The notes beneath the pieces were generated by a model. It worked only from the letters and a program-made list of their open reading frames with translations. It was not told the origin of the DNA and did no database searches. Below are positions 40,421-55,925 of a DNA stretch of 64,000 nt, piece after piece. Numbering within the stretch: the stretch's first letter is position 1; the number at the start of each line of letters is the position of its first letter. The stretch spans positions 930,001-994,000 of the forward strand of contig NZ_AP022619.1 of assembly GCF_010731655.1 (NCBI RefSeq), in the 5' to 3' direction. The position numbers were made by a program, and so were the translations under genes. The stretch comes from Mycobacterium paraseoulense (lineage in GTDB: Bacteria > Actinomycetota > Actinomycetes > Mycobacteriales > Mycobacteriaceae).

Positions 40421-41317
40421 TCAGGGGCGCTGCTTGGCCGCGGGCAGGATCTCGGGGGCCAGGCGCCAGTCCTCCAGACCGTTGTCGACCGTGCCGTAGG
40501 ACAGCTTTCCTCCGGTCACCTCCGCCCAATGCGCGTGATTGAGCTGGTGGATGGAAAAGCAGGCATCGAGCGCCGCGGACAAGCCCATAGCGTCGACGGA
40601 CTGGTTCACCGACTCCTTGATGAACAGCGCCGTGACCGTCGGCAACTTGGCGATACGGCGGGCGAAATCGATTGTGCAATCTGATAACTCGTCGTTAGGG
40701 AAGACCTTGCTCACCATCCCGATGGCGTGCGCGTTGTGGGCGTCAAGCGAGTCGCCGGTGAGCAAGAGCTCCTTTGCCTTACGCGGACCGAACTCCCATG
40801 GATGACCGAAGTACTCCACCCCGCACATCCCGAGCCGCGTCCCGACGACATCGGCGAAAACGGTGTCCTCGGCCGCAACGATGAGATCGCAACACCAAGC
40901 CAGCATCAGGCCGGCCGACAACACCGTGCCGTGGACCTCGGCAATGGTGATCTTCCGGAGATTGCGCCACCGTTTGGTGTTCTCGAAGAAGTAGTGCCAC
41001 TCCTGCCGATGCCGTGACTCCACCCCGCCGCGCGTTCCGCCGTTGCACCGATATGTGGGGTGCTGGTCCGGGCCCGGTGAGCGCTCGCGGACGTCGTCGG
41101 TCGAGCCGAGGTCGTGCCCCGCGGAGAACGACGGCCCCGCCCCCCGCAGGATCACCACGCGGACCGCATCGTCTACTTCGGCGAGCGCGAAAGCGGAGCC
41201 CAGCTCAACAAGCATCCCGCGGTTCTGCGCATTCCGTTGTTTCGGGCGGTCGAGCGTGATGACGGCGATCCGGCCTTGGTCGACGACCTCGTATTGGATG
41301 TAGTCGAAATCCTGCAC
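40421..41317 (-). CDS. echA13: enoyl-CoA hydratase, EchA13-like
   Basis: A 298-residue crotonase-family protein. The oxyanion-hole block [13 protein letters not shown] and the second signature [18 protein letters not shown] are clear. GTG at 41317, after AAAGGAGCATTCC, is the best start; the frame extends 84 codons upstream, but that stretch crosses the divergent operator and has no ribosome site. It contains an insertion with Cys and Trp residues ([30 protein letters not shown]) seen in this mycobacterial subgroup. First gene of the four-gene leftward operon. Counterpart of Rv1935c; substrate unknown. Confidence 0.87.
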
Positions 41318-41625
41318 GGAATGCTCCTTTCGAGGAGTGGACGGGGCCGCGCGGACATGTCGACGGCAGTGTCCTCGCGCGGTTCGGCCTGTCGTCGCCG
41401 CCCCAACTGCGCGTGGCCGGGCTGACGTCGGTGAGGCTACGCGTCCTAGAACAAAATGTCCATTAGCGATACGCAGACTGGAAACTATGTGAAACGTAAA
41501 TTCCCATGACAAATGCGTCTTGCGCGCAATGATGTATCTTGCTAGTACTGTGTTGTAGGTTGCAATCAAGAGATCGCCGAGTGCCGTCTCGGGCTGGGTT
41601 CGGTCACTACTGAGGAAGGTTGAAG
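41318..41625. promoter_or_regulatory. divergent echA13/mel2 promoter with bipartite putative Mce3R operator
   Basis: A 308-base region with no gene. It carries both halves of a module found three times in the window. The first is a core GTATCTTGCTAGTAC at 41534-41548, continuing with conserved sequence to 41567. Then, 59 bases away on the echA13 side, lies GCGTATCGCTAATGGACAT at 41456-41474 (minus strand). At the mid-offset 34-38 it also has TTTAC, conserved in position in the mce3 copy. For mel2, TTGCGC (41520) and TAGTAC (41543), 17 bases apart, could be a promoter overlapping the core. Predicted to be bound by the tandem-TetR protein Mce3R. Confidence 0.75.
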
Positions 41626-42735
41626 ATGGAGATCGGGATTTTTCTCATGCCGGCGCATCCGCCCGAGCGAAACCTCTACGACGCGACGCAGTGGGACCTC
41701 GAGATCATCGAGCTTGCCGACCAGCTGGGCTACGTGGAGGCCTGGGTCGGGGAGCACTTCACCGTGCCATGGGAGCCGATCTGTGCGCCCGATCTGCTGT
41801 TGGCGCAGGCGCTGCTGCGCACGAAGTCGATCAAGCTGGCTCCCGGAGCGCATCTGCTGCCGTACCACCACCCGGTGGAACTCGCCCACCGAGTGGCCTA
41901 CTTCGACCACCTGGCCCAGGGCCGCTACATGCTGGGCGTCGGTGCCAGTGGTATCCCGGGCGACTGGGCGCTGTTCGATGTCGACGGACAAAACGGCGAG
42001 CACCGCGAGATGACGCGCGAAGCCCTCGAGATCATGCTGCGTGTCTGGACCGAAGACGGCCCCTGGGAACATCGGGGAAAGTACTGGAACGCCAACGGCA
42101 TTGCACCGATGTTCGAGGGTTTGATGAAACGCCACATCAAGCCTTTCCAGAAGCCCCACCCGCCCATCGGCGTCACGGGGTTTTCCGCCGGATCGGAGAC
42201 ACTCAAGCTCGCCGGCGAGCGCGGCTACCTGCCCATGAGCCTGGACCTCAACACCGAGTACGTGGCGACGCACTGGGACGCGGTGCTGGAAGGCGCCGCG
42301 CGCAGCGGGCGCACGCCGGATCGCCGCGACTGGCGACTGGTGCGTGAGGTCGTCGTCGCCGAAACTGACGAGAAGGCATTCCGGTACGCGGTCGACGGCA
42401 TCATCGGACGCAACATGCGCGAGTACGTCCTGCCGACCTTCCGCATGTTCGGCATGACCAAGTTCTACAAACACAGCCCCGCGGTGCCCGACGCAGACGT
42501 GACACCGGAATACCTCGCCGAGAAAACGTTCGTGGTCGGCTCCGTCGAGACGGTGGTCGACAAGCTGGAGGCGACCTATGACCAGGTCGGCGGATTCGGG
42601 CATCTGCTGATCCTCGGGTTCGACTACAGCGACAATCCCGGCCCGTGGAAGGAGTCCATGCGGCTGCTCGCAGAGGAGGTCATGCCCAGGCTCAACGCGC
42701 GCCTCGCGAAGAAACCGGCAATCGCGACCGTCTAG
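41626..42735 (+). CDS. melF: luciferase-like flavin monooxygenase, MelF
   Basis: A 369-residue LLM-class protein, the same length as M. tuberculosis Rv1936. The TIM-barrel marks are MEIGIFLMPAHPPERN, GYVEAWVGEHFTVPWEP, IKLAPGAHLLPYHHPVELAHRVAYFD in two parts, and GRYMLGVGASGIPGDW. It would use reduced flavin and oxygen. First gene of the mel2 operon, which in M. marinum and M. tuberculosis is described as resembling bioluminescence operons and affecting reactive-oxygen resistance. The ATG follows GAGGAAGG. The flavin reductase is encoded three genes downstream. Natural substrate unknown. Confidence 0.9.
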   Translation: MEIGIFLMPAHPPERNLYDATQWDLEIIELADQLGYVEAWVGEHFTVPWEPICAPDLLLAQALLRTKSIKLAPGAHLLPYHHPVELAHRVAYFDHLAQGRYMLGVGASGIPGDWALFDVDGQNGEHREMTREALEIMLRVWTEDGPWEHRGKYWNANGIAPMFEGLMKRHIKPFQKPHPPIGVTGFSAGSETLKLAGERGYLPMSLDLNTEYVATHWDAVLEGAARSGRTPDRRDWRLVREVVVAETDEKAFRYAVDGIIGRNMREYVLPTFRMFGMTKFYKHSPAVPDADVTPEYLAEKTFVVGSVETVVDKLEATYDQVGGFGHLLILGFDYSDNPGPWKESMRLLAEEVMPRLNARLAKKPAIATV

Positions 42736-42764
42736 CCGTCGGCAACCGATCGAAGGGGCACCCC

Positions 42765-45302
42765 ATGGAGGCTCGTCAGGTAGCGGTCCGGTATTCGGAC
42801 GGAACGTCTAAGACGATGCCGGTGCAGCCAGACCAGTCGATCCTGGAGGCCGCCGAGGAACACGGCGTCGCCATCGTCAGCGAATGCCAAAGCGGCATCT
42901 GCGGCACCTGTGTCGCCACCTGCGCGTCCGGAGAGTACGAGATGGGGCGCACCGAGGGTCTGTCCGAGGTCGAGCGCGACGCGCGAAAGATCCTGACGTG
43001 CCAGACGTTCGCGAAATCGGATTGCCTCATCGAGCTTCAATACCCCGCCGACGACAATGCGGCGCGGCTGGTCACCGGGCACGGAGTGGTGACCGCGGTG
43101 GATCGGGTGTCGTCGACCACCGCGATTCTGCGAGTGGATGTTTCGGCCATGTCCGACCCCGTCGTCTACCAGGCCGGACAGTTCGCGCAGTTGCAGGTGC
43201 CCGGTACCGACGCCTGGCGCAACTACTCCTACGCGCATCCCGCCGACGGCCGGGACGAACTGGAGTTCATCATCAGGTTGCTGCCCCGCGGCGTGATGTC
43301 GGACTATCTGCGCGATCTCGCAAAGCCCGGTGACCGCATTGCGTTGCGGTGCAGCAAGGGCGGCTTCTACCTGCGCCCGGTTGTGCGACCGGTGGTCCTG
43401 GTGGCCGGCGGCACCGGTCTGTCGGCGATCTTGGCGATGGCCGAGAGCCTGGAAGCCGATGTCGCACAGCCGGTCCAGCTGCTGTACGGGGTGACCGCCG
43501 TCGATGATCTGTGCAAGCTGGACGAACTCAGGGCGCTGGCACGGCGAGTCCCGAACCTGCGGGTACACCTGATCGTCTCGCGTCCGGACGCGAACTGGGA
43601 CGGGCCGGTCGGACTTGTCACAGATCTGCTGAACGAAGACATGCTCGGCGCCGGCGACGCCGACGTCTATCTGTGCGGTCCGGCCGCGATGGTGGAAGCC
43701 ACCCGCAACTGGCTGGCCCGCAACGGCATTCATCGTATCGGCCTGTACTACGAGAAGTTCGTGCCAAGCGGTACGGTGCGTCGCCGTACGCCGCCGCGAG
43801 TGGAGTACGCGGACCTGGATCTGGCCGGCGTGCGCCGCAGCGGCCGCGGTACGGCCGTGGTCATCGGCGGCAGTATCGCCGGAATCGCCGCGGCCAAGGT
43901 ATGCAGCGAGTCCTTTGAGCGGGTGATCGTGCTGGAGAAGGACAGCCCCCATTCTCGCCGCGAGGGCAGACCGGGCGCGGCGCAGGGCTGGCATCTGCAT
44001 CATCTGCTTACCGCGGGACAGATCGAGCTGGAGCGCATCTTCCCCGGCATCGTAGACGACATGGTGCGCGAGGGGGCGTTCAAGGTCGACATGGCCGCCC
44101 AGTACCGCATCCGCCTAGGCGGCACCTGGAAGAAGCCCGGTACCAGTGACATTCAAATCGTCTGCGCCGGAAGGCCGCTGCTCGAGTGGTGCGTGCGACG
44201 ACGGCTGGACGACGAACCGCGCATCAGCTACCGCTACGAGTCCGAGGTGGCCGACCTCGTCTATGACCGCGACACCAACACCGTTGTGGGCGTCGCCGTA
44301 GACCGTGACGGTCAATTGGAGGCCGTACCCGCCGAATTCGTTGTCGACGCCTCGGGAAAGAACACCCGTGTACCGGAGTTCCTGGAACGCATCGGAATCG
44401 GAGCACCCGAGGTCGAACAGGACATCATCAACTGCTTTTACTCCACCATGCAGCACCGCGTCCCGCCCGAACGGCAGTGGAAGGACAAGGTGATGGTGAT
44501 CTGCTACGCCTACCGGCCGTACGAGGACACCTACGCCGCGCAGTACTACACCGATAACTCGCGCACCATCCTGTCCACCTCCCTGGTCGCCTACAACTGC
44601 TACTCGCCACCGCGTACCGCGCGCGAGTTCCGCGAATTCGCCGATCTCATGCCCTCATCCGTGGTCGGGGAGAACATCGACGGGCTGGAGCCGGCGTCAC
44701 CGATCTACAACTTCCGTTATCCCAACATGCTTCGGCTGCGCTACGAGAAGAAGCGCAACCTCCCACGCGCACTGCTGGCCGTCGGCGACGCGTATACCAG
44801 CGCCGATCCTGTGTCCGGACTGGGGATGAGTTTGGCCCTCAAGGAAGTTCGCGAATTGGGCCTCATGCTGGCGAAGTACGGTCCCGGACATCGCGATCTA
44901 CCGCGCCGCTACTACCGCAAGATCAGCCGCCTGGCCGATACGGCCTGGTTCGTGATCCGTGAGCAAAACTTGCGCTTCGACTGGATCAAGGACGTGGATT
45001 CCAAGCGCCCGTTCTATTTCCGCGCCCTGACCTGGTACATGGACCGCGTCATCGAGTTGGTCCACGACGACCTGGACACCTACCGCGAGTTTCTGGCGGT
45101 CGTCCACCTGGTCAAGCCGCCGTCGGCGCTGATGAGGCCGAAGGTTGCCGGACGGGTGATCGGCAAGTGGGCGCGCACCAGGGTATCTGGGCGCAAGACG
45201 CTCATCGCCCGCAACTACGAGAATCGCGAAGTACCCTCTGCCGACCATCTTGTCCAAACCGAAAAGATTCCGGTCGGTTTGGCGGGAACCCATATCCTCT
45301 AG
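42765..45302 (+). CDS. melG: ferredoxin-reductase-FAD hydroxylase fusion, MelG
   Basis: An 845-residue three-part protein. Residues about 1-90 are a plant-type [2Fe-2S] ferredoxin with C41-x4-C46-x2-C49 and C79. Residues about 100-345 form an FNR-like reductase (AWRNYSYAHP for FAD, VLVAGGTGLSA for NAD(P)H, VYLCGPAAM). From about 365, AVVIGGSIAGIAAAKV opens a large FAD-dependent hydroxylase-like domain, with a second FAD motif in AVGDAYTSADPVSGLGMSLA. The design suggests NAD(P)H electrons passing through flavin and iron-sulfur centres to an oxygenase partner or to its own third domain. Counterpart of Rv1937. Confidence 0.9.
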   Translation: MEARQVAVRYSDGTSKTMPVQPDQSILEAAEEHGVAIVSECQSGICGTCVATCASGEYEMGRTEGLSEVERDARKILTCQTFAKSDCLIELQYPADDNAARLVTGHGVVTAVDRVSSTTAILRVDVSAMSDPVVYQAGQFAQLQVPGTDAWRNYSYAHPADGRDELEFIIRLLPRGVMSDYLRDLAKPGDRIALRCSKGGFYLRPVVRPVVLVAGGTGLSAILAMAESLEADVAQPVQLLYGVTAVDDLCKLDELRALARRVPNLRVHLIVSRPDANWDGPVGLVTDLLNEDMLGAGDADVYLCGPAAMVEATRNWLARNGIHRIGLYYEKFVPSGTVRRRTPPRVEYADLDLAGVRRSGRGTAVVIGGSIAGIAAAKVCSESFERVIVLEKDSPHSRREGRPGAAQGWHLHHLLTAGQIELERIFPGIVDDMVREGAFKVDMAAQYRIRLGGTWKKPGTSDIQIVCAGRPLLEWCVRRRLDDEPRISYRYESEVADLVYDRDTNTVVGVAVDRDGQLEAVPAEFVVDASGKNTRVPEFLERIGIGAPEVEQDIINCFYSTMQHRVPPERQWKDKVMVICYAYRPYEDTYAAQYYTDNSRTILSTSLVAYNCYSPPRTAREFREFADLMPSSVVGENIDGLEPASPIYNFRYPNMLRLRYEKKRNLPRALLAVGDAYTSADPVSGLGMSLALKEVRELGLMLAKYGPGHRDLPRRYYRKISRLADTAWFVIREQNLRFDWIKDVDSKRPFYFRALTWYMDRVIELVHDDLDTYREFLAVVHLVKPPSALMRPKVAGRVIGKWARTRVSGRKTLIARNYENREVPSADHLVQTEKIPVGLAGTHIL

Positions 45303-45315
45303 GAGAGCGGTTGAG

Positions 45316-46371
45316 ATGCCACAGACTCATCGGATGCTGAACTGCCGGGGCACTCGGATCCACGCCGTCGAGGATGGCGAGGGACCGTTGGTGGTGTTGA
45401 TCCACGGGTTTCCGGAGTCCTGGTACTCGTGGCGTCACCAAATTCCCGCGCTGGCCGCCGCCGGCTACCGCGTGGTGGCCATAGACCAGCGCGGCTACGG
45501 GCGGTCGTCCAAGTACCGGGTGCAGTCGGCCTACCGGATCAGGGAAATGGTCGGCGACGTCCTCGGAGTCATCGACGCCTACGGCGAGAAGACGGCCGTC
45601 GTCGTCGGCCACGACTGGGGCGCGCCAGTGGCCTGGACCTTCGCGTGGCTGCACCCGGACAGGTGCGCGGGCGTGGTGGGCGTCAGCGTGCCCTTCGCCG
45701 GCCGCGGTGTGATCGCGCTGCCGGGCAGTCCCTTCGGCGAGCGCCGTCCCAACGACTATCACCGGGAAATCGCCGGCGAAGGCAAGGTTTGGTACCAGGA
45801 TTACTTCGCCGCGCAGGACGAAATCATCGCCGAGATCGAGGAGGACCTGCGCGGCTGGCTGCTGGGTCTGACGTACACGGTTTCCGGGGAAGGCATGATC
45901 GCGGCTACCAACGCGGCCGAGGCGGCGGGTGTCGATCTGGCATCCCTGGACCCGCTCGATGTGATCCGTGCGGGTCCGTTGTGCATGCCCGAGGGAGCAA
46001 GGCTCAAGGACGCTTTCGCCTATCCGGAGACGATGCCGGACTGGTTCACCGAAGCCGATCTCGGTTTCTATACCGGCGAATTCGAGCGCTCTGGCTTCGG
46101 AGGACCGCTGAGCTTCTATCACAACATCGACAATGACTGGCAGGACCTGGCCGACCAGGCCGGCAGGCCGCTCACCCCGCCCGCACTGTTCATCGGCGGA
46201 CAGTACGACGTCGGCACCGCCTGGGGAGCCGAAGCCATCGAGCGCGCGGGCGAAGTGATGCCGAACTACTGTGGCACTCACCTGGTTTCCGATGTCGGTC
46301 ACTGGATCCAGCAGGAAGAACCGAAGGAAACCAACCGGCTGGTGCTCGATTTCTTGCACGGGCTGCGTTAG
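45316..46371 (+). CDS. ephB: epoxide hydrolase EphB/MelH
   Basis: A 351-residue alpha/beta-hydrolase-fold epoxide hydrolase. The oxyanion motif is H30-G-F-P; the nucleophile Asp100 is in VVGHDWGAPVAW; the base is His329 in DVGHWIQ; and cap-domain Tyr residues (WYQDYFA region and later FYHN) would protonate the epoxide. It opens epoxides to vicinal diols. Start ATG 45316 after AGGAGAG. Counterpart of Rv1938 (EphB, also called MelH). It follows MelG by 13 bases in the mel2 operon and has a close paralogue at 48821-49864. Confidence 0.92.
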   Translation: MPQTHRMLNCRGTRIHAVEDGEGPLVVLIHGFPESWYSWRHQIPALAAAGYRVVAIDQRGYGRSSKYRVQSAYRIREMVGDVLGVIDAYGEKTAVVVGHDWGAPVAWTFAWLHPDRCAGVVGVSVPFAGRGVIALPGSPFGERRPNDYHREIAGEGKVWYQDYFAAQDEIIAEIEEDLRGWLLGLTYTVSGEGMIAATNAAEAAGVDLASLDPLDVIRAGPLCMPEGARLKDAFAYPETMPDWFTEADLGFYTGEFERSGFGGPLSFYHNIDNDWQDLADQAGRPLTPPALFIGGQYDVGTAWGAEAIERAGEVMPNYCGTHLVSDVGHWIQQEEPKETNRLVLDFLHGLR

Positions 46372-46390
46372 CGGGTAGGTCGCGAACGGT

Positions 46391-46909
46391 ATGGAACTAG
46401 TCACCTCGCAATGCGTCGACGACACCGAATTGCGCCGGGTGTTCGGCTGTTTCCCGTCCGGGGTCATAGCCGTTTGCGCGATGGTCGACGGCGAACCGGT
46501 CGGGATGGCCGCAAGCTCGTTCACCACGGTCTCGCTCACGCCGCCGCTGGTGTCGATCTGCATCCAGAACAGCTCGGCGACCTGGCCGACGCTGAGGGGC
46601 CGCGCCGCGCTCGGGGTGAGCGTGCTGGCCGAGGACCACACCGGGGCATGCCGGAGTCTCTCGCGCAAGGACGGCGACCGCTTCGCTGGAGTGAGCTGGA
46701 TTCAGCGGTCCAGTGGGAGCGTCTTCGTCCACGGCGCCAGCGCGTGGCTGGATTGCCGCCTGCACGCCGAGGTCCCGGCGGGCGACCACACCATCGTCCT
46801 GTTGGAGATCTGCGCGTTGCGCGCGGACCCCGACACACCGCCACTTGTATTCCACGGCAGTCGGTTCCATCGCCTCGCGGCGGTGGCGGCAACGAAGGAG
46901 CAGACATGA
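46391..46909 (+). CDS. melI: flavin reductase-like protein, MelI
   Basis: A 172-residue split-barrel FMN-binding protein of the flavin-reductase family: LRRVFGCFPSGVIAVCAMVDGEPVGMAASSFTTVSL, in two parts, then PPLVSICIQNSSATWPTL, and FHGSRFHRL at the end. It would use NAD(P)H to supply reduced flavin to MelF, as in two-component monooxygenases. The stop overlaps the next ATG (ATGA). Length matches Rv1939. Confidence 0.87.
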   Translation: MELVTSQCVDDTELRRVFGCFPSGVIAVCAMVDGEPVGMAASSFTTVSLTPPLVSICIQNSSATWPTLRGRAALGVSVLAEDHTGACRSLSRKDGDRFAGVSWIQRSSGSVFVHGASAWLDCRLHAEVPAGDHTIVLLEICALRADPDTPPLVFHGSRFHRLAAVAATKEQT

Positions 46910-47997
46910 AAACCACCGACGTCCGGGTGCGGCGCGCGATCGCGGCGGTGGCGGCAGGCCACCCGGTCGTGCTCACCGACGACACCGCGCCCGACACCGA
47001 CGGCCATCTGGTCTTCGCCGCCGACGGGGCCACCCCGAAGTTGCTCGCGTTCACCATCCGACACACCTCGGGTTATGTCCGTGTCGCGTTGCCGGGCGAC
47101 GAGTGCGAGCGGCTGAACCTACCGCCGATGTGCCACACCAACGGCGCCGAGTTCGGTACCGCCGCGCATCGCGTGTCCGTCGACTACCACGGGCCGGGCA
47201 CGGGGATCTCAGCGACCGACCGCGCCCGGACAATCGCGGCACTCGCGTCGGCGGATTCCGCGGCTTCGGATTTCCTTCGTCCGGGACATGTGGTTCCCGC
47301 GCATGCTCGATCCGGGGGAGTGTTAGAGCGGCAGGGGCCGATCGAGGCGGCGATCGACTTGGTTCGCCTCGCGGGGCGGCGACCTGCGGCGGCACTGTGC
47401 GAGATCGTGTCCCTCGACCGTCCCACCGCAATGGCGCGCCGCCGGGAGTTGTTCGAGTTCGCCGTCGCACACGCGCTGCCCATCGTTTCGATCGGTGAAC
47501 TTGTCGCGTATCGGCGGCGGACCGAGCCCCAGGTAGTCCGTCTTGCAGAGACGATCCTGCCGCTAAGCGGCGGCGATTCCCGGGTGATCGGTTTCCGCGA
47601 CGTACGTGCGGCCGGCCCCGGCGGCGAGCACTTGGCCGTCATCATCGGCACGGTCGGCCCCGGTATGCCCGTGCCCTTGCACGTCCACGTCGAGTGCCTC
47701 ACCGGCGACGTGTTCGGCTCTGCGGCCTGCCGCTGCGGCGGGGAACTCGACAGCGCGCTGAGCACGATGGCGGCGCAGGGCGGTGGCGTGATCGTCTACC
47801 TGCGCCCCGCCGGCTCGCTGCGCGCATGTGGTCTCCCGGAAAGCGACTCCCCGGCAACGGATCTCACCTCGGAGACCGTCGCGTGGATATTGCGTGATCT
47901 GGGCGTGTACACCATCCGGCTGTCAGAGGAAACGCCGGGCTTCGGCATGGTGATGTTCGGGGGGATACGCGAATACGGTCTGCGCGCGGCAGGTTGA
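46906..47997 (+). CDS. ribA1: RibBA-like protein with eroded active sites, MelJ
   Basis: A 363-residue homologue of bifunctional RibBA. The N-terminal half matches DHBP synthase in layout, but the acidic DDEDRENEGD-type motif is replaced by TDDTAPDTDGH, and the metal-binding His of GGHTEA is Pro in RQGPIEAAIDL. The C-terminal half keeps the GTP-cyclohydrolase-II zinc ligands (ECLTGDVFGSAACRC) but replaces the catalytic HRQEGR-IGL stretch with LRPAGSLRACGL and is short. Both classical activities are therefore doubtful. It may bind a flavin precursor or have a new role in the mel2 pathway. Counterpart of Rv1940 (annotated RibA1). Confidence 0.87.
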   Translation: MKTTDVRVRRAIAAVAAGHPVVLTDDTAPDTDGHLVFAADGATPKLLAFTIRHTSGYVRVALPGDECERLNLPPMCHTNGAEFGTAAHRVSVDYHGPGTGISATDRARTIAALASADSAASDFLRPGHVVPAHARSGGVLERQGPIEAAIDLVRLAGRRPAAALCEIVSLDRPTAMARRRELFEFAVAHALPIVSIGELVAYRRRTEPQVVRLAETILPLSGGDSRVIGFRDVRAAGPGGEHLAVIIGTVGPGMPVPLHVHVECLTGDVFGSAACRCGGELDSALSTMAAQGGGVIVYLRPAGSLRACGLPESDSPATDLTSETVAWILRDLGVYTIRLSEETPGFGMVMFGGIREYGLRAAG

Positions 47998-48034
47998 GAA
48001 ATAGCATGACCCAACATGATGGCGAGGTGAGTCG

Positions 48035-48805
48035 ATGACCCATCGAGACCTGGCCGACAAGGCGGCGATCGTGACCGGCGCCGGGGCCGGGATCGGGCTG
48101 GCGATCGCGGAAAGACTCGCCACCGAGGGCTGTCGGGTGCTCTGCGCGGACATTGACGGTGGCGCCGCCGACGCCGCCGCGGCGAAAATCGGTGGCGGCG
48201 CGGTCGGCCACCGGGTCGACGTGGGCGACGAGCAGCAGGTTATCGGCATGGTCGAGGCATGCGTCAACGCATTCGGCGGCGTAGACAAGCTTGTTGCCAA
48301 CGCGGGCATCGTCCATTTCGCCCCGCTCACCGACACCGCGGCATCGGATTTCGACCGCGTGATCGGGGTCAACCTGCGCGGTGCATGGCTGTGCACCAAA
48401 CATGCGGCGCCCAAGATGATCGAGCGGGGTGGGGGAGCCATCGTCAACATGTCATCGTTGGCCGGCCTCGTTGGGGCTGGCGGCACCGCAGCCTATGGAA
48501 TGTCCAAGGCGGGTGTCATCCACCTCAGCCGGGTCACCGCCGCCGAGCTGCGGTCAGCAGGCGTGCGATCCAACGCGGTGTTGCCCGCCTTCGTCGACAC
48601 GCCGATGCAACAGACCGCGATGACGGTGTTCGACCAGGCGCTCGGGGAGGGGGGTGCGAACACCATGATCGATCGACTGCAAGGCCGCATGGCCGGACCG
48701 GCGGAGATCGCGAGCGTGGTGGCATTCCTGCTGTCAGACGACGCCTCGATGGTCAACGGAACCGCGCAGCTCGTCGACGGCGGGACCGTCGCCGCTCTCT
48801 GGTGA
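48035..48805 (+). CDS. melK: short-chain dehydrogenase, MelK
   Basis: A 256-residue SDR, the same length as M. tuberculosis Rv1941. Cofactor motif VTGAGAGIGLAIAERL, NAGIV, catalytic Ser in MSSLAGLVG, and YxxxK in AAYGMSKAGVIHL; the ending NGTAQLVDGGTVAALW is typical. Likely oxidises an alcohol, for example the diol or alcohol produced earlier in the mel2 pathway (inference). It follows melJ by 37 bases and is the last gene of the rightward mel2 operon; the next gene runs the other way, 15 bases between stops. Confidence 0.88.
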   Translation: MTHRDLADKAAIVTGAGAGIGLAIAERLATEGCRVLCADIDGGAADAAAAKIGGGAVGHRVDVGDEQQVIGMVEACVNAFGGVDKLVANAGIVHFAPLTDTAASDFDRVIGVNLRGAWLCTKHAAPKMIERGGGAIVNMSSLAGLVGAGGTAAYGMSKAGVIHLSRVTAAELRSAGVRSNAVLPAFVDTPMQQTAMTVFDQALGEGGANTMIDRLQGRMAGPAEIASVVAFLLSDDASMVNGTAQLVDGGTVAALW

Positions 48806-48820
48806 GCCACTGCGGGCTCG

Positions 48821-49864
48821 TCACCGCAACTGGCCCAGGAAGTCCAGCAGCAGCCGGTTGGTCTCGGCGGGGTTCTCCTGCTGGATCCAGTGGCCCGCAC
48901 CGGGAATGATGTGACTTCCCCGGTAATCAGCCATCTTCTCGTCGGCGCGTGCGATCGCCTCGGCGCCCCAGATCGTCGCCACGTCGTACTCGCCGCCGAT
49001 GAACATCGCCGGCGGCGTCAGCTTCTGATGCTCGACGTCTGCAAGCACCTCCCAGCCGGCATCGACGTTGTGGTAGAACGCCAGACCGCCGGAAAAGCCC
49101 GCGCGTTCGAACTCGTTGACGTAGAAGTCCAGATCGTTTTCGGTGAACCACTCGGGCATGGCATCCGGCCAGACGAATGCATCGTCAAGCCTGGCTCCGT
49201 CCGCCATGCACAACGGCCCAAAGCGCAGTGCCTCGATCGGATCCGTCGGCAGGGGGCCGGCGGCCAGCGCGGCGGCCGCCGCCTGGCCCGACACCGTATA
49301 CGTCAGTCCGAGGAACCACTTTCGAAGGTCTTCTTCGATCTCGTTGATGATCCCGTCCTGTTCGGAGAAGTAATCTTGGTAGAACGTCCTGCCCGGGCCG
49401 GCGAGTTCGATGTGGTAGTCACGCGGACGCATCTCGCCGAAAGGGCAACCGGGCAATCCGATCAGCCCGCGTCCCGCGAACGGAACGCTGAGCCCGACCA
49501 CCCCTCGGCACCGCTGCGGGTGCAGCCAGGCGAATGTCCATCCAACCGGGGCGCCCCAGTCGTGCCCGACCACGACGGCCTGTTCCTCGCCGTACGCATC
49601 GATCAACGCTTCGACGTCGGCAACGACTTCGTCGATGCGGTATGCGCTGTTGACCCTGAACTTCGACGACCTTCCGAATCCCCGCTGGTCGATCGCGACC
49701 GCCTTATAGCCCGCGTTCGCCAGCGCCGGAATCTGATGACGCCAGGAATACCAGGACTCCGGAAACCCGTGCAGGAGAATGACCAATGGTCCCGATCCCT
49801 GCTCGACGACATGGATGCGCGCGCCGCCGCAATCGACGTTCTTGTGAATCATTGTCACGCTCAT
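48821..49864 (-). CDS. second EphB-type epoxide hydrolase
   Basis: A 347-residue alpha/beta-hydrolase epoxide hydrolase strongly similar to EphB at 45316: shared blocks include HGFPESWYSWRHQIPALA, GHDWGAPV-WTFAWLHP, VVG-SVPFAGRG and GHWIQQE-P-ETNRL-LDFL. The nucleophile is Asp102 in VVGHDWGAP, with H32-G-F-P as oxyanion hole. It is a duplication next to the operon but in the opposite orientation. ATG 49864 chosen; the upstream frame adds 36 residues of poor quality. I do not recall a counterpart at this place in M. tuberculosis. Probably a different epoxide size or stereochemistry. Confidence 0.88.
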   Translation of the reverse strand: MSVTMIHKNVDCGGARIHVVEQGSGPLVILLHGFPESWYSWRHQIPALANAGYKAVAIDQRGFGRSSKFRVNSAYRIDEVVADVEALIDAYGEEQAVVVGHDWGAPVGWTFAWLHPQRCRGVVGLSVPFAGRGLIGLPGCPFGEMRPRDYHIELAGPGRTFYQDYFSEQDGIINEIEEDLRKWFLGLTYTVSGQAAAAALAAGPLPTDPIEALRFGPLCMADGARLDDAFVWPDAMPEWFTENDLDFYVNEFERAGFSGGLAFYHNVDAGWEVLADVEHQKLTPPAMFIGGEYDVATIWGAEAIARADEKMADYRGSHIIPGAGHWIQQENPAETNRLLLDFLGQLR

Positions 49865-50011
49865 TTCTCTGAGGCGGGGGATGGATTCGGTATCGGTAAT
49901 CGCAAAGGCGTTGCCGTAGAATGTCTTTGCTGATGTTCCCCGATGCAGCTCGGGGAACTCTTCGGTGGGCAAGGTCGGCCAGAGACCCTTCGGTGGCGCG
50001 CTCCGGCATGG

Positions 50012-50773
50012 CTACTGAGCCACCAGTCCGCCGTCGACGAGCAGCGAATGCCCGGTCACGAAGCTCGACTCGTCCGAGCCCAGCCACAGTGCGGAACGGG
50101 CCACTTCTTCGGATGTCGCAATGCGGCCGAGCGGAGTCTGCCGCCCCAGCGATTCACGGAGCGCCGGGTTTTCGTTGGTGATCGTATCGAGCATCGGTGT
50201 GTCGACCAGGTGCGGGCACAGGGCGTTGACCCTGATGCCATCGGGTGCGACGTTCATGGCGGTCGACTTAACCAGGCCCACGACCGCATGCTTGCTCGCG
50301 ACGTACGCGGGTAGCCCGGCGGGTCCGATCACCCCGGCCGCCGACGCCGTGGCGACGATGACGCCGCGCCGTCGCTCGATCATTCGCGGCAAGACCGCCC
50401 GGATGGTTCTCCAGGTGCCGGTGATGTTGATATCGAGGATCTTGGTGAACTCGTCTTCGGAATAGGTCCACACGTCTCCGAGGGTCCCGAGGACACCGGC
50501 GTTGGCGAACGCGACGTCGATCGCCCCGAGCAAGTCGGATCCGCGATTGACGAGTTTCTCGACCTCGGCAGTGTTCGAGACGTCGCATCGTGCGTGATAG
50601 GCCGCTGCCCCTTCGGACCTCAACTCGGCGGCCGTGTCGGCCAGCCGATCGTGCCGAATGTCGCCGAGGATCAGCCGGGCGCCTTCGCGGGCAGCGGCGC
50701 AGGCGATGGCGCGGCCGATGCCGGAGGCCGCCCCGGTCACCAACACCGTCTTGCCGAGATATCGCTCGTTCAC
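50012..50773 (-). CDS. short-chain dehydrogenase/reductase
   Basis: A 253-residue SDR. Cofactor motif VTGAASGIGRAIACAA, then a loop typical of NAD use (LILGDIRHD), NAGVLG, the catalytic Ser block ATASAAGVIG, and YxxxK in AYVASKHAVVGL. I placed the start at GTG 50773, preceded by CAGGACGG; an ATG at 50854 would add 27 residues and run into a possible operator half-site. It follows the second epoxide hydrolase gene in the opposite-strand block and probably acts on its diol product (inference). Confidence 0.83.
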   Translation of the reverse strand: MNERYLGKTVLVTGAASGIGRAIACAAAREGARLILGDIRHDRLADTAAELRSEGAAAYHARCDVSNTAEVEKLVNRGSDLLGAIDVAFANAGVLGTLGDVWTYSEDEFTKILDINITGTWRTIRAVLPRMIERRRGVIVATASAAGVIGPAGLPAYVASKHAVVGLVKSTAMNVAPDGIRVNALCPHLVDTPMLDTITNENPALRESLGRQTPLGRIATSEEVARSALWLGSDESSFVTGHSLLVDGGLVAQ

Positions 50774-50967
50774 GATCGCCGTCCTGGTCGATAATCTTGA
50801 AACAGCCTCTCTGACAATATCTTTGAGTGGATGTCGGTGTATATGTGATAGCAAGGACGTACAACATCATGCGCAAGTAAATCCCACGCCGGCCGAAGGT
50901 CAGCCTAAGATCGCGAATACCTTGCGATTCCCGGTAAGACCTGGTTCGGCGGATCTACACTCTGTAC
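50774..50967. promoter_or_regulatory. SDR/AraC divergent region with a degenerate Mce3R-like site
   Basis: A 194-base intergenic region. At 50846-50859 the sequence TGATAGCAAGGACG resembles the reverse of the shared core (TACTAGCAAGATAC), and CATCATGCGCAAG at 50865-50877 resembles CATCATTGCGCGCAAG next to the mel2 core. The distal GCGTAT element is not recognisable at the expected distance. It may be a weaker Mce3R site or a relic. Control by the adjacent AraC protein is also likely. Confidence 0.35.
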
Positions 50968-51885
50968 ATGACGGAGCAGTTCGGTGCTGCGGCGGCGCCC
51001 AAGGGACTAAAGAACGTGGATGCCACGGGGGTCGATCGCCGGGTTCCTGCCAAGTGCGTGCTGGCCACCCGCGACGGCGAGCTGCCGGGGGCGGACTTGC
51101 GTGTCTACCAATTTCATTCGCTTCAGACCCAGGTTCCCCCGTTGCGAGATGTCGCGGTCATAGCCTGGCACACCCACGCACAGATCGCGCTGCGATGCGG
51201 CACCATTCGCAGCAGGACACAGATGACCCCCGGGGACTTCTCCATCCTCCGGCCCGGCTATGAGTCGGCCTGGCAATGGAGCAGGTCGTTCCAGGCGACC
51301 GTGCTGTATCTCCACGAGCGCCGGCTGACCGAGTTCGCCGCGGAGGTCTTCGACCACCACGTCGACAGGGTTGCGATTCGCGAAACGTTCCAGGTCCAGG
51401 ACCCGGTCATCCAACACGGAATCGCGACGCTGGCAGCGGAGCTGCGCCAAGACGCCTTCGGAGGTGCGCTCTACAGGGAGGCGCTGCTGACGCAGCTGTG
51501 CGTGCACATGCTCCGATACCACGCCGAAACACGGCTGCGGGCACCCAGATGCCCCGGAGCGTTGAGCGCAGTACAGGCTCGCCAAGTCGCCGAGTATATC
51601 GACGGCAATCTCGCGGCGGACCTGTCCTTGCACTCACTCGCCCGAATCGCGGGAATGAGCGTGTACCACTTCGCACGGCTATTCAAGAAACGCTTCGGTG
51701 TTCCACCGCATGCATACGTTCGGCAGCGGCGCCTCGAGCGGGCGCATCAGCTCATCCTGCACAGTGACATGGCGCTCAAGGAAGTCGTTGGTGCGACCGG
51801 CTTCTGCGACCAGAGCCACATGACCAAGTCGTTGAAGCGCGCATTCGACATGACACCCGCGGAGCTGCGCAACGTTTCCCGCTGA
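50968..51885 (+). CDS. AraC/XylS-family transcriptional regulator
   Basis: A 305-residue regulator. The N-terminal about 190 residues are a ligand-sensing domain with a cupin-like start (AWHTHAQIALRCG). The C-terminal domain has two helix-turn-helices: DLSLHSLARIAGMSVYHFARLFKKRFG split over HTH1, and LKEVVGATGFCDQSHMTKSLKRAFD over HTH2, followed by TPAELR. It is divergent from the SDR gene and 72 bases upstream of a flavin hydroxylase gene, which are its likely targets. Effector unknown. Confidence 0.87.
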   Translation: MTEQFGAAAAPKGLKNVDATGVDRRVPAKCVLATRDGELPGADLRVYQFHSLQTQVPPLRDVAVIAWHTHAQIALRCGTIRSRTQMTPGDFSILRPGYESAWQWSRSFQATVLYLHERRLTEFAAEVFDHHVDRVAIRETFQVQDPVIQHGIATLAAELRQDAFGGALYREALLTQLCVHMLRYHAETRLRAPRCPGALSAVQARQVAEYIDGNLAADLSLHSLARIAGMSVYHFARLFKKRFGVPPHAYVRQRRLERAHQLILHSDMALKEVVGATGFCDQSHMTKSLKRAFDMTPAELRNVSR

Positions 51886-51957
51886 GCGCAAGTCTGTACC
51901 AAGAACGGCGCAAGGTGAGCCAAGACGCCACACCGCCACGGTTCGCACACTTCGATC

Positions 51958-53337
51958 ATGACTGGGAAAGACTTGGTTCGCTACGGCGGCTTTGGCGGAC
52001 GGCGCGCCATAGTCATCGGCGCCAGCACCACCGGCATGGCCGCATCCGCGGTTGCCGCAAGGCATTTCGACTCCGTGATCAGCATCGACCGGGACCGCCT
52101 GCCGAATGAACCGCAATGGCGAAAGGGCGTGCCTCAGTCGCACCACGGCCACATCCTCCTGCGAGGCGGGCAAAACGTTTTCAACCACTATTTCCCGGGA
52201 CTGACCACCGACTTGCTCGCCAAGGGCTCGGTGGAAGTCGATATGGCGAACGATATCTGCTGGTACCACTCCGGGGGATGGAAGAGACGCTTCGACAGCG
52301 GGTTGACGATGCTGTGCCAAACCCGCGGTTTCCTCGAGCATTACATCCGCCGGCGGTTGATGCAGGTGCCTAATGTGACGATGCTGCAGAACACCAAGGT
52401 GCAGGGCTACAGCGTCCATGGCGGTCGCATAACGGGCGTGGAGCTCGCCGACGGGACGCCCTTGGAGGCGGACCTGGTCATCGACGCGAGCGGGCGCAAC
52501 TCCGACACCCCGCGGCACCTGGGCTCCCTCGGATTCGAACCTCCCGAAGTCAGCGAGCTCAAGGTCGATATCGGCTATTCCACCACCCTGTTCACGCCCC
52601 CCGAAGGTCCCCGCGACTGGAAAGCCATGTTGATCCACTCCCGACCGCCTGCCACCCGGACCGCGGCACTGCTGCCTACCGAAGGTAACCGTTGGATCGT
52701 TACCTTGCTCGGCTGGCAGGGCGACTACGCGGGGGCAGACATCGAAAGCTTCCTCGACTGGACGAGAGGCTTGCCCGTCCCCGACCTGTACGAGGTCCTG
52801 CGCGAGGCGACCTGCGTGGAAGAGGTCCATCGCTGGCGATTTCCGGCGAATCTGCGTCGCCACTATGACAAGCTGACGACGGCACCCGAGGGCTTGGTCG
52901 TCGTCGGCGATGCCAACACTTCGCTGAATCCGCTTTATGCGCAGGGCATGTCACACGGCGCCGTCGGAGCGAGCATTCTGGACAGGTGTCTGAGCGACCA
53001 ACGACTAGCTGTCGGCGCCGGCCGAATCGATGGACTGTCCAAGCGATTCCATCGTGCATACAGCCGATTCCTCGACGAGTGCTGGTTTACGTCGACCGTG
53101 GAGGACTATGGTGCGGTTTCCGCCAATGGGGGCGGGCGGCTGGTATCGAAACTTGCCAGCTGGTACCTGGGAAAGGTCACCGAAACCACCTGGCGCGATG
53201 TGGGTGTCGCTCGGGAGTTCATCGACGTGATGCACCTACAGCGCGCGCCGATGACCCTGATGCGACCGTCGGTCATCATGAAAGCGCTGCTATCGAACCC
53301 CTCATCCGCTCACCAATCCCGGCCGGTGCGCGCGTAA
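51958..53337 (+). CDS. FAD-dependent hydroxylase, paralogue of the MelG C-terminal domain
   Basis: A 459-residue flavoprotein. An unusual Rossmann motif AIVIGASTTGMAASAVAARHF begins near residue 16, followed by VISIDRDRLP, a KGVPQSHHGHILL segment, and the second FAD block LVVVGDANTSLNPLYAQGMSHGAVG. The same elements and order (QG-H-H-LL, FVVDASGKN or LVIDASGRN, and VGDA-TS-P--G-GMS) occur in the third domain of MelG. It may be a stand-alone hydroxylase that borrows electrons from elsewhere, or a geranylgeranyl-reductase-like enzyme. Confidence 0.83.
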   Translation: MTGKDLVRYGGFGGRRAIVIGASTTGMAASAVAARHFDSVISIDRDRLPNEPQWRKGVPQSHHGHILLRGGQNVFNHYFPGLTTDLLAKGSVEVDMANDICWYHSGGWKRRFDSGLTMLCQTRGFLEHYIRRRLMQVPNVTMLQNTKVQGYSVHGGRITGVELADGTPLEADLVIDASGRNSDTPRHLGSLGFEPPEVSELKVDIGYSTTLFTPPEGPRDWKAMLIHSRPPATRTAALLPTEGNRWIVTLLGWQGDYAGADIESFLDWTRGLPVPDLYEVLREATCVEEVHRWRFPANLRRHYDKLTTAPEGLVVVGDANTSLNPLYAQGMSHGAVGASILDRCLSDQRLAVGAGRIDGLSKRFHRAYSRFLDECWFTSTVEDYGAVSANGGGRLVSKLASWYLGKVTETTWRDVGVAREFIDVMHLQRAPMTLMRPSVIMKALLSNPSSAHQSRPVRA

Positions 53338-53405
53338 TTGCCGCCCATTGTCGGGTTGCCGTCCCGGATAGTCGCTACAACGGCTGAGCCAGAGGACAAC
53401 TGAAG

Positions 53406-54617
53406 CTAGTCCGCTCCGATCGATTCGGAGCGGCTCGTCAGGATCGAAAGCGCAATGGCGGTGATCTCATCCGCGACGCCCGTGTATCGCGTGAGGTGCC
53501 AGGTGCGGACGACGTCATCCACGAAGCTGTCCACGGCCGCGACGAGCAGCCGGGCCTCTGCGACGGTGGTTTCGGGCACCAACTTGCGCATGAGATCGGT
53601 CCACACGGCCTCGCGGTCGGCCTGGTTTCTCAGGTAGGTCTCGCGGACCTCGCTGGAGGCATGGGACAGCTCGGTCACCGAAACAGCAACGAGATCGGGA
53701 CCGTCCAGGCTGATTCGGACGCGGCCTTCGACAAGCCCGTGTAAACGCTCGGCCGCAGTCTGTTTCGTGCGAAGTGCGCGGATGCATTCGAGGCTTCGCC
53801 ACTCGTCGAGACGCCGAATGAGCGCATCGAGAATGGCCTGTTTCGAGGAGAACGAGCGGTACAGACCCGGGCCGGCGATTCCCACTCCCTTGCCGATTTC
53901 GCTGGTGCTGACCGCCGGATACCCTTTCGCACGGAACAAGCGTGCGCCCGCGGCAAGCAGGGTCTCATACCGGGAGAATCTTGCAGCCTCGTCGTCCAGC
54001 GGCTCGTCAAGTGGTTCCAAGGTGCGAGTGGGAGGTGTCCGTGCCGCGGCCATGCACGCTCGGTACAAAAGATCTTTCAGTTCATCGCCCGGCAGGCTCA
54101 GATTGTGTCTGCCCAGGCTGGTCAGAGTGCTGGATACCGCCCAGGCCCGCAGCTCCGAGTGCTGCGGGCTCAGGCCAGGCGCCTCCAGGAGGACGCTGTC
54201 GCGGATGCCGGCGACGATCGCGTTGATGCGGCGCCGAACCTCCGCTCGGTCGCCATCATTGAGGTAACGGGCCTCGCGCTGCCACAACACCGTCAAGGCC
54301 CGAGATGCGACGGCCGCGGCGATCAGGTCCGGCAGATCGACGCTCAGCTGCCGAGGTGTCGGCTCCGCCTCTCCATCGGTGAGACGACGAGCGCTTTGGT
54401 ACTGCTCCTGGCCGGTTCGGATCGCTTCGGCCAGCAACGCCTGCTTGTTGTCGTAGTGACGATACAAGGCACGCGCGGTGACTCCTGCCGCCTCGGCGAT
54501 GTCCTCCAACTTGACCGAATGGAAGCCACGGTCGATGAAGAGCCCAACGGCCTGCTCCAGGATCTGCTTCTTTCGGTCCTTTGGCCGGCGCTTAACGGGC
54601 GTGACGACGGGCTCCAT
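53406..54617 (-). CDS. mce3R: tandem TetR-type repressor Mce3R
   Basis: A 403-residue regulator with two TetR DNA-binding domains in one chain. The first (residues about 12-58) contains [21 protein letters not shown]; the second (about 208-255) contains [21 protein letters not shown]. Each is followed by a helical ligand-type domain. Single-chain double TetR proteins are rare, and Mce3R (Rv1963c, about 406 residues) is the known mycobacterial case; it represses mce3 and also genes of the fadE17-18/mel2 region. The start at 54617 gives the expected length. It is divergent in effect from mce3 with the LEH-type gene between. The three shared modules are its likely targets. Confidence 0.92.
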
Positions 54618-54672
54618 CGACTCCAACCCCCTTCTCGCGCATCGGATCCACAAATCCTGCCAGAAGCATTGC

Positions 54673-55065
54673 CTACAGCTCTATCCCGCTCTGGCGCTCG
54701 AAGTCCGCAAGGTCGAAGTAGTCGCTGAAACGCGTGATCTTGCCATTCTTGACCTCAAACACGCCGGTCACCGGCAGCGCGACTTTGCGACCGTCGTTCA
54801 TCGTGAAGTAGTCGACGCGCTCGACGAGCACCCGGGCGGGCTCGGCAACCAGTGTGACGATATCGAGCCGGACATCCGAGAACGCGTCCAGAAACGCCCG
54901 GAACATCGCGCGGATGCCGGAAATGCCCGTGATCGGGTCGACGGGCACGTTGTGGTAGACCGCGTCGTCGGCAAAGGCGCTGCAGATGGTTTCGAGGCTG
55001 CGCCCCCGCCAGGAGCCGAGAAAGCCGCGGACGAGCTTCTCGCTGGCTTCCTTGGTATCGATCAT
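54673..55065 (-). CDS. limonene-1,2-epoxide hydrolase-type protein
   Basis: A 130-residue NTF2-fold enzyme of the limonene-epoxide hydrolase (LEH) family. Residues matching the LEH active site are visible: Tyr37-x-Asn39 (AVYHNVP) to hold water, Arg83-x-Asp85 in VERVDYF, and Asp115 in FSDYFDL. Spacing from Tyr37 to Arg83 equals that in the Rhodococcus enzyme. It opens epoxides in one push-pull step, unlike the alpha/beta-hydrolase Eph proteins. ATG 55065 after GGAGGAG; upstream codons run into the operator. It shares its promoter region with the operator module and lies between mce3R and mce3. Confidence 0.82.
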
Positions 55066-55159
55066 GCGAATGGCTCCTCCGGTGTCACTGCGCGGATGTG
55101 GTCGCATGTGACACATCGGGGTACCCCGCCGCACGCCACCCACAGCCATCCATATCATC

Positions 55160-55253
55160 GTACTAGCAAGATACATTAGTTTGCTTATGCGGGACATTAC
55201 ATCGTTATTTGCTGAGTTGATCCCCCTCGCCTAGGCGTATCGTTCATAGACAT
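55160..55253. promoter_or_regulatory. bipartite putative Mce3R operator, LEH-side copy
   Basis: The core GTACTAGCAAGATACAT (55160-55176) is the exact reverse complement of 17 bases of the mel2 core. After a 60-base spacer follows GCGTATCGTTCATAGACAT (55235-55253), matching the second element of the other two copies at 14 or more of 19 positions. A TTTGC motif lies at the same mid-offset as TTTAC in the other copies. The core is 94 bases from the LEH-type start, the same relative orientation as the core to melF. Confidence 0.75.
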
Positions 55254-55513
55254 ATGGCCCTCCGGGCTGCCCAATCGCAGAAGCGCATGCGCCCAAACCT
55301 GTCCGGAATCTGGGTCGCCCCGATGAAGGTCCGACGTGGGTCATGGTCGGCCGCGAAATCTGCGTCGCGTCCGGTATTGCGTGATGACACCGGCGCATTG
55401 TTCGCCCGGGACGCCTAAGGCATCGGCTGCCGCTCGCCTCCGATGAGGTGCCCGGCCGGCGAAGTGCGCAGGGCGCGAGATGCGGTCAAGCCGCGCGCCG
55501 GAGTCAGCACTCA
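55254..55513. other. intergenic stretch between the two operator copies
   Basis: About 260 bases without a convincing gene. A 54-codon frame (55254-55418) begins exactly at the end of the LEH-side operator element but has no ribosome-binding site and a composition like random GC-rich sequence, so I do not call it. The remainder shows nothing recognisable. The spacing places the two operator modules 372-373 bases apart in the same orientation. Confidence 0.4.
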
Positions 55514-55625
55514 GATTGCGACTTGCAACACAGTACTATCAAGATACTTCAGTAGCCACAAGTGGCTGTTTGCTTCGTATTTTACGAATACGTCAGTAGA
55601 TGATGTGCGTATTGTCTATGGACAT
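55514..55625. promoter_or_regulatory. bipartite putative Mce3R operator upstream of mce3
   Basis: The segment 55514-55547, read in reverse complement, matches 30 of 34 positions of the mel2 site, including AGTACTGTGTTG and GCAATC. After 59 bases comes GCGTATTGTCTATGGACAT (55607-55625). The spacer has two hairpins: AGCCAC-AA-GTGGCT (55554-55567) and CGTATT-N5-AATACG (55576-55592). TTTACG (offset 34-39) coincides in position with the echA13/mel2 copy. This should be the main repressor site for the mce3 operon. Regulator identity is inferred. Confidence 0.78.
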
Positions 55626-55925
55626 CTGGCCGCTGGGCCGCGTACGCTCGCGGTATCACTCGTCCACTTCGACCTGTCCTGGGGGGTCAGCGTGAGCAAC
55701 TCCACCCAACGACACGTCATCGATTCCACGTGGTGCGCGGCGCAGTCGTTTTCGGTGGGCGGGTGTCTTTCCGACGGCAGCACGGTTAAAGAAGCCGTGC
55801 TCGATCATGCGGCCGACCGGCCGTACCCATCTGCGAGTGCGGGCGAGTCGGGGCATCCTCGCCGCGGCGCCGCGCCCAGGCATACCGGGGTGCGCCGACC
55901 TGGCGAGCGGGCTTTGGGGGCAGAC

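What the first reader, a model, noticed from the sequence alone, without database searches (positions are those of the whole stretch)
41456..55625. Three-copy bipartite DNA module marks a contiguous putative Mce3R regulon
Seen directly: three intergenic sites share a core (17 exact bases between the melF and LEH-side copies; 30 of 34 between the melF and mce3 copies) followed at 59, 60 and 59 bases by GCGTATYGYYNATRGACAT (41456-41474, 55235-55253, 55607-55625). The reverse complement of the second element (TAGCGATACGC in the melF copy) resembles the core (TAGCAAGATAC), so the two parts look like inverted half-operators about seven helical turns apart. TTTRC also recurs at the same offset between them. 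The genes served are echA13/mel2, the LEH-type enzyme and mce3, with the double-TetR gene mce3R among them. Known: Mce3R represses mce3 and acts on the fadE17-18/mel2 region. Inferred: a two-DBD repressor may bind both halves of one module and bend or loop the DNA.
Basis: partly seen in the sequence, partly recalled or inferred. Interest (0 to 1): 0.82.

Follow-up and report, generated by a model that had tools for sequence, protein, structure and literature searches.

The report
Paired direct-repeat Mce3R repressor sites
Three matching control sites in this Mycobacterium genome each look like a pair of same-direction binding sites for the repressor Mce3R, held about 76 bases apart; the kind of switch is known, but relatives show that the pair and its spacing are kept even beside a single promoter.

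Summary
The three modules are real and at the stated places. In this 6.09-Mb genome element 1 has exactly three sites within 3 mismatches, all in the modules. Modules track mce3R: a strict pattern occurs in 49 of 69 sampled genus genomes with mce3R and 0 of 327 without it, within 13.6 kb of the gene. The link to Mce3R is well supported and, for the M. tuberculosis mce3 promoter, already published (PMC11667970). The elements are direct repeats, not inverted halves (p=0.0004 direct, 0.41 inverted). In the published structure both DNA-binding domains of one chain sit inside one element. New here: in 86 of 86 modules (42 named loci plus window) the gap is 58-61 bp with 20-130 allowed, although 22-23 bp of it are unconserved. 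Element 2 contains a -35-like box followed by a -10 in 69 of 69 modules facing echA13, yrbE3A or a LuxR gene and in 0 of 16 others. Both elements persist in modules with one promoter. The LEH-side module is best read as the autoregulatory operator of a LEH-mce3R operon.

The parts
41532..41548 (-). mel module, element 1 (GTACTAGCAAGATACAT)
   Evidence: profile score 43.2
41456..41472 (-). mel module, element 2 (GTATCGCTAATGGACAT), gap 59
41457..41462 (-). predicted -35 TGGACA of the echA13-side promoter, inside element 2
41434..41439 (-). predicted -10 TAGCCT (TANNNT), spacer 17
41546..41551 (+). -10-like TACTGT toward melF, overlapping element 1; 31 of 31 mel modules have TANNNT here
55160..55176 (+). 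LEH-mce3R module, element 1 (GTACTAGCAAGATACAT)
55237..55253 (+). LEH-mce3R module, element 2 (GTATCGTTCATAGACAT), gap 60; no -10 follows
55533..55549 (+). mce3 module, element 1 (GTACTATCAAGATACTT)
55609..55625 (+). mce3 module, element 2 (GTATTGTCTATGGACAT), gap 59
55619..55624 (+). predicted -35 TGGACA of the mce3 promoter, inside element 2
55643..55648 (+). predicted -10 TACGCT (TANNNT), spacer 18
53406..54617 (-). mce3R, double-TetR repressor (403 aa from the ATG; longest ORF 53406-54653)
   Evidence: two TetR_N stretches; best PDB sequence match is Mce3R 9b7y, E=1.6e-206; start and stop codons read
54673..55065 (-). LEH/SnoaL-like gene just upstream of mce3R, same strand, likely same operon
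   Evidence: PF07858/PF12680; synteny
40421..41317 (-). echA13-like enoyl-CoA hydratase (GTG start, approximate)
   Evidence: PF00378
41626..42735 (+). melF-like luciferase-family monooxygenase, head of the mel2 genes
   Evidence: PF00296
55692..56699 (+). yrbE3A, first gene of mce3 (start uncertain, 55692 or about 55902)
   Evidence: PF02405; reading

Best explanation
Each module is a complete Mce3R operator made of two directly repeated, nonpalindromic 17-bp sites (shared pattern about GTAY-N3-C-N-A-N3-ACAT) whose starts lie 76-77 bp apart (75-78 across species). Each site takes one Mce3R chain with both of its helix-turn-helices, and the two sites bind cooperatively. Element 2 covers the -35 box of the promoter reading away from it (echA13, yrbE3A); element 1 overlaps a -10-like box of the promoter reading the other way (melF and, in some species, mce3R). 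Bound Mce3R shuts these promoters and its own operon (LEH-mce3R). Shown by computation here: sites, spacing, orientation, promoter-box overlap, co-occurrence. Shown by others for M. tuberculosis mce3: binding, loss of affinity when site 1 is scrambled, both domains in one site, a C2 dimer holding two DNAs. Inferred: that the same holds in this species, and that the fixed spacing exists because one Mce3R homodimer (or a rigid pair) contacts both sites, most simply with the DNA between them in a tight hairpin bend; direct repeats run antiparallel in such a bend, as a C2 dimer with its axis across the DNA needs.
For: Co-occurrence 49 of 69 mce3R+ and 0 of 327 mce3R- genus genomes; reversed-pattern control 0 in every genome. 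Gap 58-61 in 86 of 86 modules with 20-130 allowed, while the 22-23 bp before element 2 are 0.26-0.33 identical, near random. Direct-repeat similarity p=0.0004, also in the 50 modules not caught by the seed pattern. In L107 the left halves of the two elements look exchanged, at exactly 76 bp. TRGACA-17/18-TANNNT in 31/31 mel, 16/16 mce3 and 10/10 shared modules and in the 12 of 13 mce3R-direct modules that face a LuxR gene; 0/15 in the LEH/mce3R-side class. Of 20 DNA-near Mce3R residues named in PMC11667970, 19 are invariant in 13 orthologues (names read). Kd 2.4 nM intact versus 59 nM with region 1 scrambled (PMC11667970, passages).
Against: No binding or expression was measured in this species. 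Modules were found by searching for pairs with profiles built from strict pairs, so unpaired sites are under-sampled; a separate scan gave 5 lone hits in 4 mce3R loci, 3 of these loci with a degenerate partner at 76 bp and one (L072) with an element-1 copy at 73 bp. Fewer than 30% of the 15 LEH/mce3R-side modules have TANNNT at the element-1 offset used by mel, so the promoter of that class is unknown. Three of those 15 (L077, L081, L083) have an outward open frame starting right after element 2 but no box. On the LEH/mce3R side, L094 and L096 gave no module above threshold. 76 bp is 7.24 helical turns, not an integer. PMC11667970 calls its probes too short to loop. One named contact residue, R9, is K in the window. 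The middle conserved region is not shown to be a third copy (p=0.10).
Confidence: 0.78

Rival explanations
1. Two independent operators, each guarding its own promoter (element 1 for the left gene, element 2 for the right gene), with no functional link between them.
For: Element 2 overlaps the right -35 and element 1 often overlaps a left -10-like box.
Against: All 16 mce3-side modules found keep element 1 (gap 59), and all 15 LEH/mce3R-side modules found keep element 2 without a -10 after it (gap 59-61); the published affinity drops about 25-fold when region 1 is scrambled (PMC11667970). Caveat: modules were selected as pairs, and 3 of the 15 may have an outward gene after all.
Confidence: 0.12
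2. Inverted half-operators bound by the two DBDs of one Mce3R chain.
For: A gapped resemblance of TAGCGATACGC to TAGCAAGATAC in the melF copy.
Against: Inverted profile similarity is at chance, p=0.41; cryo-EM puts both HTHs of one chain in one 27-bp site, about 32 A apart (PMC11667970), whereas the elements are 76 bp (about 250 A of straight DNA) apart.
Confidence: 0.03
3. The spacing is a relic: all modules descend from one ancestral operator by duplication and indels have simply not occurred.
For: mel and mce3 copies share 30 of 34 bases in this window (by eye).
Against: The 22-23 bp before element 2 are 0.26-0.33 identical (saturated), yet the gap varies by at most 3 bp, while the distance from mce3 and shared modules to the yrbE3A match varies from 53 to 364 bp.
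Confidence: 0.07

Closest known systems
Mce3R operator of the M. tuberculosis yrbE3A (mce3) promoter (PMC11667970)
   Same: Two asymmetric sites plus a conserved middle region upstream of yrbE3A; published as two 25-bp sites separated by 53 bp, matching 76 bp start to start within site-boundary uncertainty; the window's Mce3R is a full-length close homologue of 9b7y.
   Different: The paper's text does not use 'invert', 'tandem' or 'direct repeat', and it states that it focuses on the mce3 site. Here two further modules (mel and LEH-mce3R), direct-repeat orientation, near-fixed spacing across species and promoter-box overlap are described. The M. tuberculosis sequence itself was not examined here.
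Mce3R autoregulation and regulon in M. tuberculosis (PMC2277422; the 2009 regulon paper is not held)
   Same: mce3 and mce3R repressed by Mce3R (passages); predicted motifs in the Rv1935c-Rv1936 intergenic region are reported second-hand in PMC11667970.
   Different: The PMC2277422 passages seen give no sites; here an mce3R operator is located, with a LEH gene between it and mce3R.
Classical TetR-family palindromic operators (recalled; described in PMC11667970)
   Same: Major-groove binding by paired helix-turn-helices.
   Different: The site is nonpalindromic, one chain supplies both helix-turn-helices (published), and two direct copies are kept.
Short repression loops such as lac or gal (recalled)
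   Same: Two operators on one DNA held at a set distance.
   Different: Looping is not shown here, and 76 bp is short for a loop.

Membership tests
Mce3R operator | Two conserved asymmetric sites at fixed spacing upstream of yrbE3A | tested here: met
   compared with the description in PMC11667970
Mce3R operator | Presence of an Mce3R orthologue in the genome | tested here: met
   window 53406-54617; co-occurrence
Mce3R operator | DNA-contact residues conserved in the regulator | tested here: met
   19 of 20 residues named in PMC11667970 invariant in 13 sequences (M2 numbers shifted by 3, from the alignment); the exception is R9, K in the window
Mce3R operator | Sites restricted to the Mce3R regulon | tested here: met
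   no other strong site in the genome
Mce3R operator | Physical binding by Mce3R | not testable with these tools
   needs EMSA or footprinting
Inverted-repeat (palindromic) TetR operator | Elements related by inversion | tested here: not met
DNA-looping repressor system | One protein complex holding both sites on one DNA | not testable with these tools
   only indirect: near-fixed spacing and the published C2 dimer with two duplexes

The most novel reading that the evidence does not exclude
Mce3R works as a ruler-like repressor: one C2 homodimer clamps two directly repeated nonpalindromic sites 76-77 bp apart on one DNA, forcing a tight hairpin bend; the bent pair is the unit of selection, kept even where only one of the two embedded promoters survives.
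Probability: 0.35. Interest if true: 0.65.

Novelty: new member of a known kind. Interest (0 to 1): 0.45.

Why it matters
Mce3R controls cholesterol- and stress-related genes in mycobacteria (PMC11667970 abstract), and why its operator has two sites of unequal strength was left open in that paper. Orientation, exact spacing, promoter overlap and the retention of both sites beside a single promoter turn that into a testable model, and give a motif usable across species to predict the regulon.

Tried and rejected
Inverted-repeat relation of the two elements: my own first idea too (an outer GT and ATAC match, written in note); rejected by profile comparison.

Middle region as a third copy of the site: best register is direct, 26 bp after element 1, but p=0.10 over all 85 classed modules (0.02 in mel alone, at a different register); left inconclusive.

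A classical -35 for the element-1-side promoter: only a TTG-type hexamer 20 bp away in mel was seen by eye; not claimed.

Distant double-TetR genes (14 loci at 28-35% identity): a paired search with gap 57-62 gave no module in any of the 14; an alignment of 6 of their intergenic regions showed a different conserved block; not pursued.

Published transcription-start data for these promoters: a three-term search listed only PMC11667970; one search listed 7 papers, of which only PMC11667970 and PMC2277422 were opened. PMC10843139 was searched for six words only and gave nothing on sites. The 2009 regulon paper is not held.

Full report
What is there. The window lies in a 6.09-Mb Mycobacterium genome, too large for the M. 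tuberculosis complex (recalled, about 4.4 Mb). It carries fadE18-fadE17-echA13 on the minus strand, the divergent mel2 genes, and further on a LEH-type gene, mce3R and the mce3 operon (gene names by recall from the M. tuberculosis order and the finding). Element 1 within 3 mismatches occurs three times in the genome, element 2 within 2 mismatches three times, and these are the same three modules. The 'matrix hits many unrelated promoters' refutation therefore fails.

Link to Mce3R. The window protein at 53406-54617 has two TetR_N stretches and its best PDB sequence match is M. tuberculosis Mce3R, 9b7y, E=1.6e-206. Of 396 genus genomes sampled, 69 have an mce3R at E<=1e-60. The strict pattern ATACATN{45,75}GTAYNNNYNATRGACAT gave 70 modules in 49 genomes, all among those 69; 0 of the other 327 had one, and the reversed control had none. 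All 70 lie within 13.6 kb of mce3R. The pattern is strict: it misses one of the window's own three modules, so the 20 mce3R genomes without a hit are not evidence of absence.

Spacing. One search gave 56 named loci; 42 have mce3R at 69% identity or more and were used, with up to 10-kb flanks; 14 at 28-35% were set aside. A profile scan, with profiles from 43 non-redundant strict modules and the gap free between 20 and 130, found 86 modules, at least one in each of the 42 loci and three in the window, with gaps of 59 (45), 60 (37), 61 (3) and 58 (1); shuffled sequence of 20 loci gave no positive score. The 22-23 bp just before element 2 are only 0.30-0.33 identical within classes and 0.26 between classes, against 0.73-0.97 for the elements within classes, so length is held while sequence drifts. 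Distances from mce3 and shared modules to the yrbE3A match vary from 53 to 364 bp. A scan for unpaired elements over the 56 loci and the window gave 7 hits: 5 in four mce3R loci and 2 weak ones in distant loci. Of those four loci, L107, L079 and L082 have a degenerate partner at exactly 76 bp; L072 has an element-1 copy 73 bp on, so three copies run in tandem there.

Orientation. Comparing profiles with a column-permutation null, the elements match in direct orientation (p=0.0004) and not inverted (p=0.41). The result repeats in the 50 modules not caught by the seed pattern (direct p=0.0004, inverted 0.46) and, for direct, in each of five classes (p 0.001-0.018). In L107 element 1 carries the GCGTATCG typical of element 2 and element 2 carries the GTACTAGC typical of element 1, as expected of interchangeable copies. 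The middle conserved region, anchored to element 1, is not demonstrably a third copy (p=0.10).

Promoters. The ATRGACAT end of element 2 supplies a -35-like TRGACA followed after 17 or 18 bp by TANNNT in 31 of 31 mel, 16 of 16 mce3, 10 of 10 shared and 12 of 13 mce3R-direct modules, and in 0 of 15 LEH/mce3R-side modules (spacers 10-30 were scanned, with one further hit, at 30). The 12 mce3R-direct modules with the box are the 12 in which a LuxR-family gene reads away from element 2; the thirteenth, L124, has neither beside the module (that the two sets of 12 coincide is my reading of the L124 flank). So the box is present in 69 of 69 modules facing echA13, yrbE3A or that LuxR gene and in 0 of 16 others. 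The rule is not absolute: L077, L081 and L083, among the 15, have an outward open frame starting right after element 2 without the box. On the element-1 side TANNNT sits over the GTA of element 1 in 31 of 31 mel, 11 of 13 mce3R-direct and 7 of 10 shared modules, against 5 of 16 mce3-only modules. In the 15 LEH/mce3R-side modules it is below 30%, which does not fit and is unexplained. The module is AT-rich (GC 0.37-0.45 in its four 25-bp bins, 0.56-0.69 around it, 84 modules).

Which genes. In 12 of 13 mce3R-direct loci without LEH the module stands 67-71 bp from the mce3R match (44 bp in L124); in L085, L088, L089 and L102, also without a detected LEH, it is 85-238 bp. Eleven loci (L069, L070, L071, L074, L075, L076, L078, L080, L085, L097, L117) and the window have one module on the LEH/mce3R side and another at mce3, the two gene ends being about 0.45 to 5.7 kb apart. 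L079 and L082 have an mce3 module and a degenerate pair on the LEH/mce3R side; L094 and L096 gave only the mce3 module there. In nine loci a single module serves a shared divergent region of about 0.26-0.67 kb, and L072 has one module plus an extra element 1. The LuxR gene (GerE domain in the one protein scanned, L098; homologues adjacent in 12 of 13 loci) is a predicted extra target.

Mechanism. The 2024 study (abstract, passages and named sections read) showed for M. tuberculosis mce3 two asymmetric 25-bp sites separated by 53 bp, Kd 2.4 nM for both against 59 nM with region 1 scrambled, both helix-turn-helices of one chain in one 27-bp site, and a C2 homodimer holding two DNA duplexes; it suggested looping between operators. 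Of 20 DNA-near residues named there, 19 are invariant in 13 orthologues here, R9 being K in the window (M2 numbers shifted by 3). Adding the present results, the operator unit is a pair of direct repeats at a near-fixed 76-77 bp, and the pair is kept where only one promoter remains. Independent single-site repression does not easily explain that; a complex in which both sites are held together does. A hairpin bend closed by one C2 dimer fits direct repeats geometrically (my reasoning, no model built), but 7.24 turns and the cost of bending leave it unproven; I put it at about 0.35.

Known or new. The kind of operator is known, so the finding is a new member with a sharper architecture. Whether direct-repeat orientation or the buried -35 has been noted elsewhere I can only say for what I saw: the words 'invert', 'tandem' and 'direct repeat' do not occur in PMC11667970; one search listed 7 papers and one, whose titles and abstract openings, apart from PMC11667970, do not announce work on this operator's architecture, and only PMC11667970 and PMC2277422 of them were opened. 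The 2009 regulon paper is not held.

Noticed in passing
window 55692-55902: The yrbE3A frame is open about 210 bp upstream of the 265-aa form; a GTG at 55692 with a G-rich stretch before it lies about where relatives' yrbE3A begins, so the window's protein may carry an N-terminal insertion of about 70 residues.
   Followed up: no
L098:8850-9833 (-): A GAF/LuxR-family regulator is divergent from mce3R in the M. rhodesiae-like group (12 of 13 mce3R-direct loci), with a TANNNT box 7 bp before a GTG in L098, suggesting a leaderless transcript and a predicted extra Mce3R target.
   Followed up: partly
L077, L081, L083, element-2 side: An outward open frame begins close to element 2 but has no TRGACA/TANNNT promoter there; gene not identified.
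   Followed up: partly
L124:402-498 (-): M. austroafricanum has a weaker module (gap 59) beside another yrbE3A-like gene (60% identity) and a distant double-TetR paralogue, about 9.5 kb from its mce3R.
   Followed up: no
L110, L111, L112, L114, L115, L118: A distant double-TetR gene (28-31% identity) sits beside another mce-type yrbE pair in Mycolicibacterium; the intergenic region has a different conserved block (GTTAATGAA...CTTGACG).
   Followed up: partly
L117: In M. genavense the LEH, melG and fadE17 matches are split or truncated, suggesting decay of this region; three modules are still present.
   Followed up: no
G125:C1 both contig ends: The same modules occur near both ends of the contig (5683/14737 and 5929479/5938615), with a second, partial mce3R match at one end, probably overlapping ends of a circular assembly.
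   Followed up: no
window 45250-46371 (+) and 48821-49972 (-): Two alpha/beta-hydrolase (epoxide-hydrolase-like) genes, alike by eye, lie about 2.5 kb apart on opposite strands between the mel2 head and mce3R.
   Followed up: no
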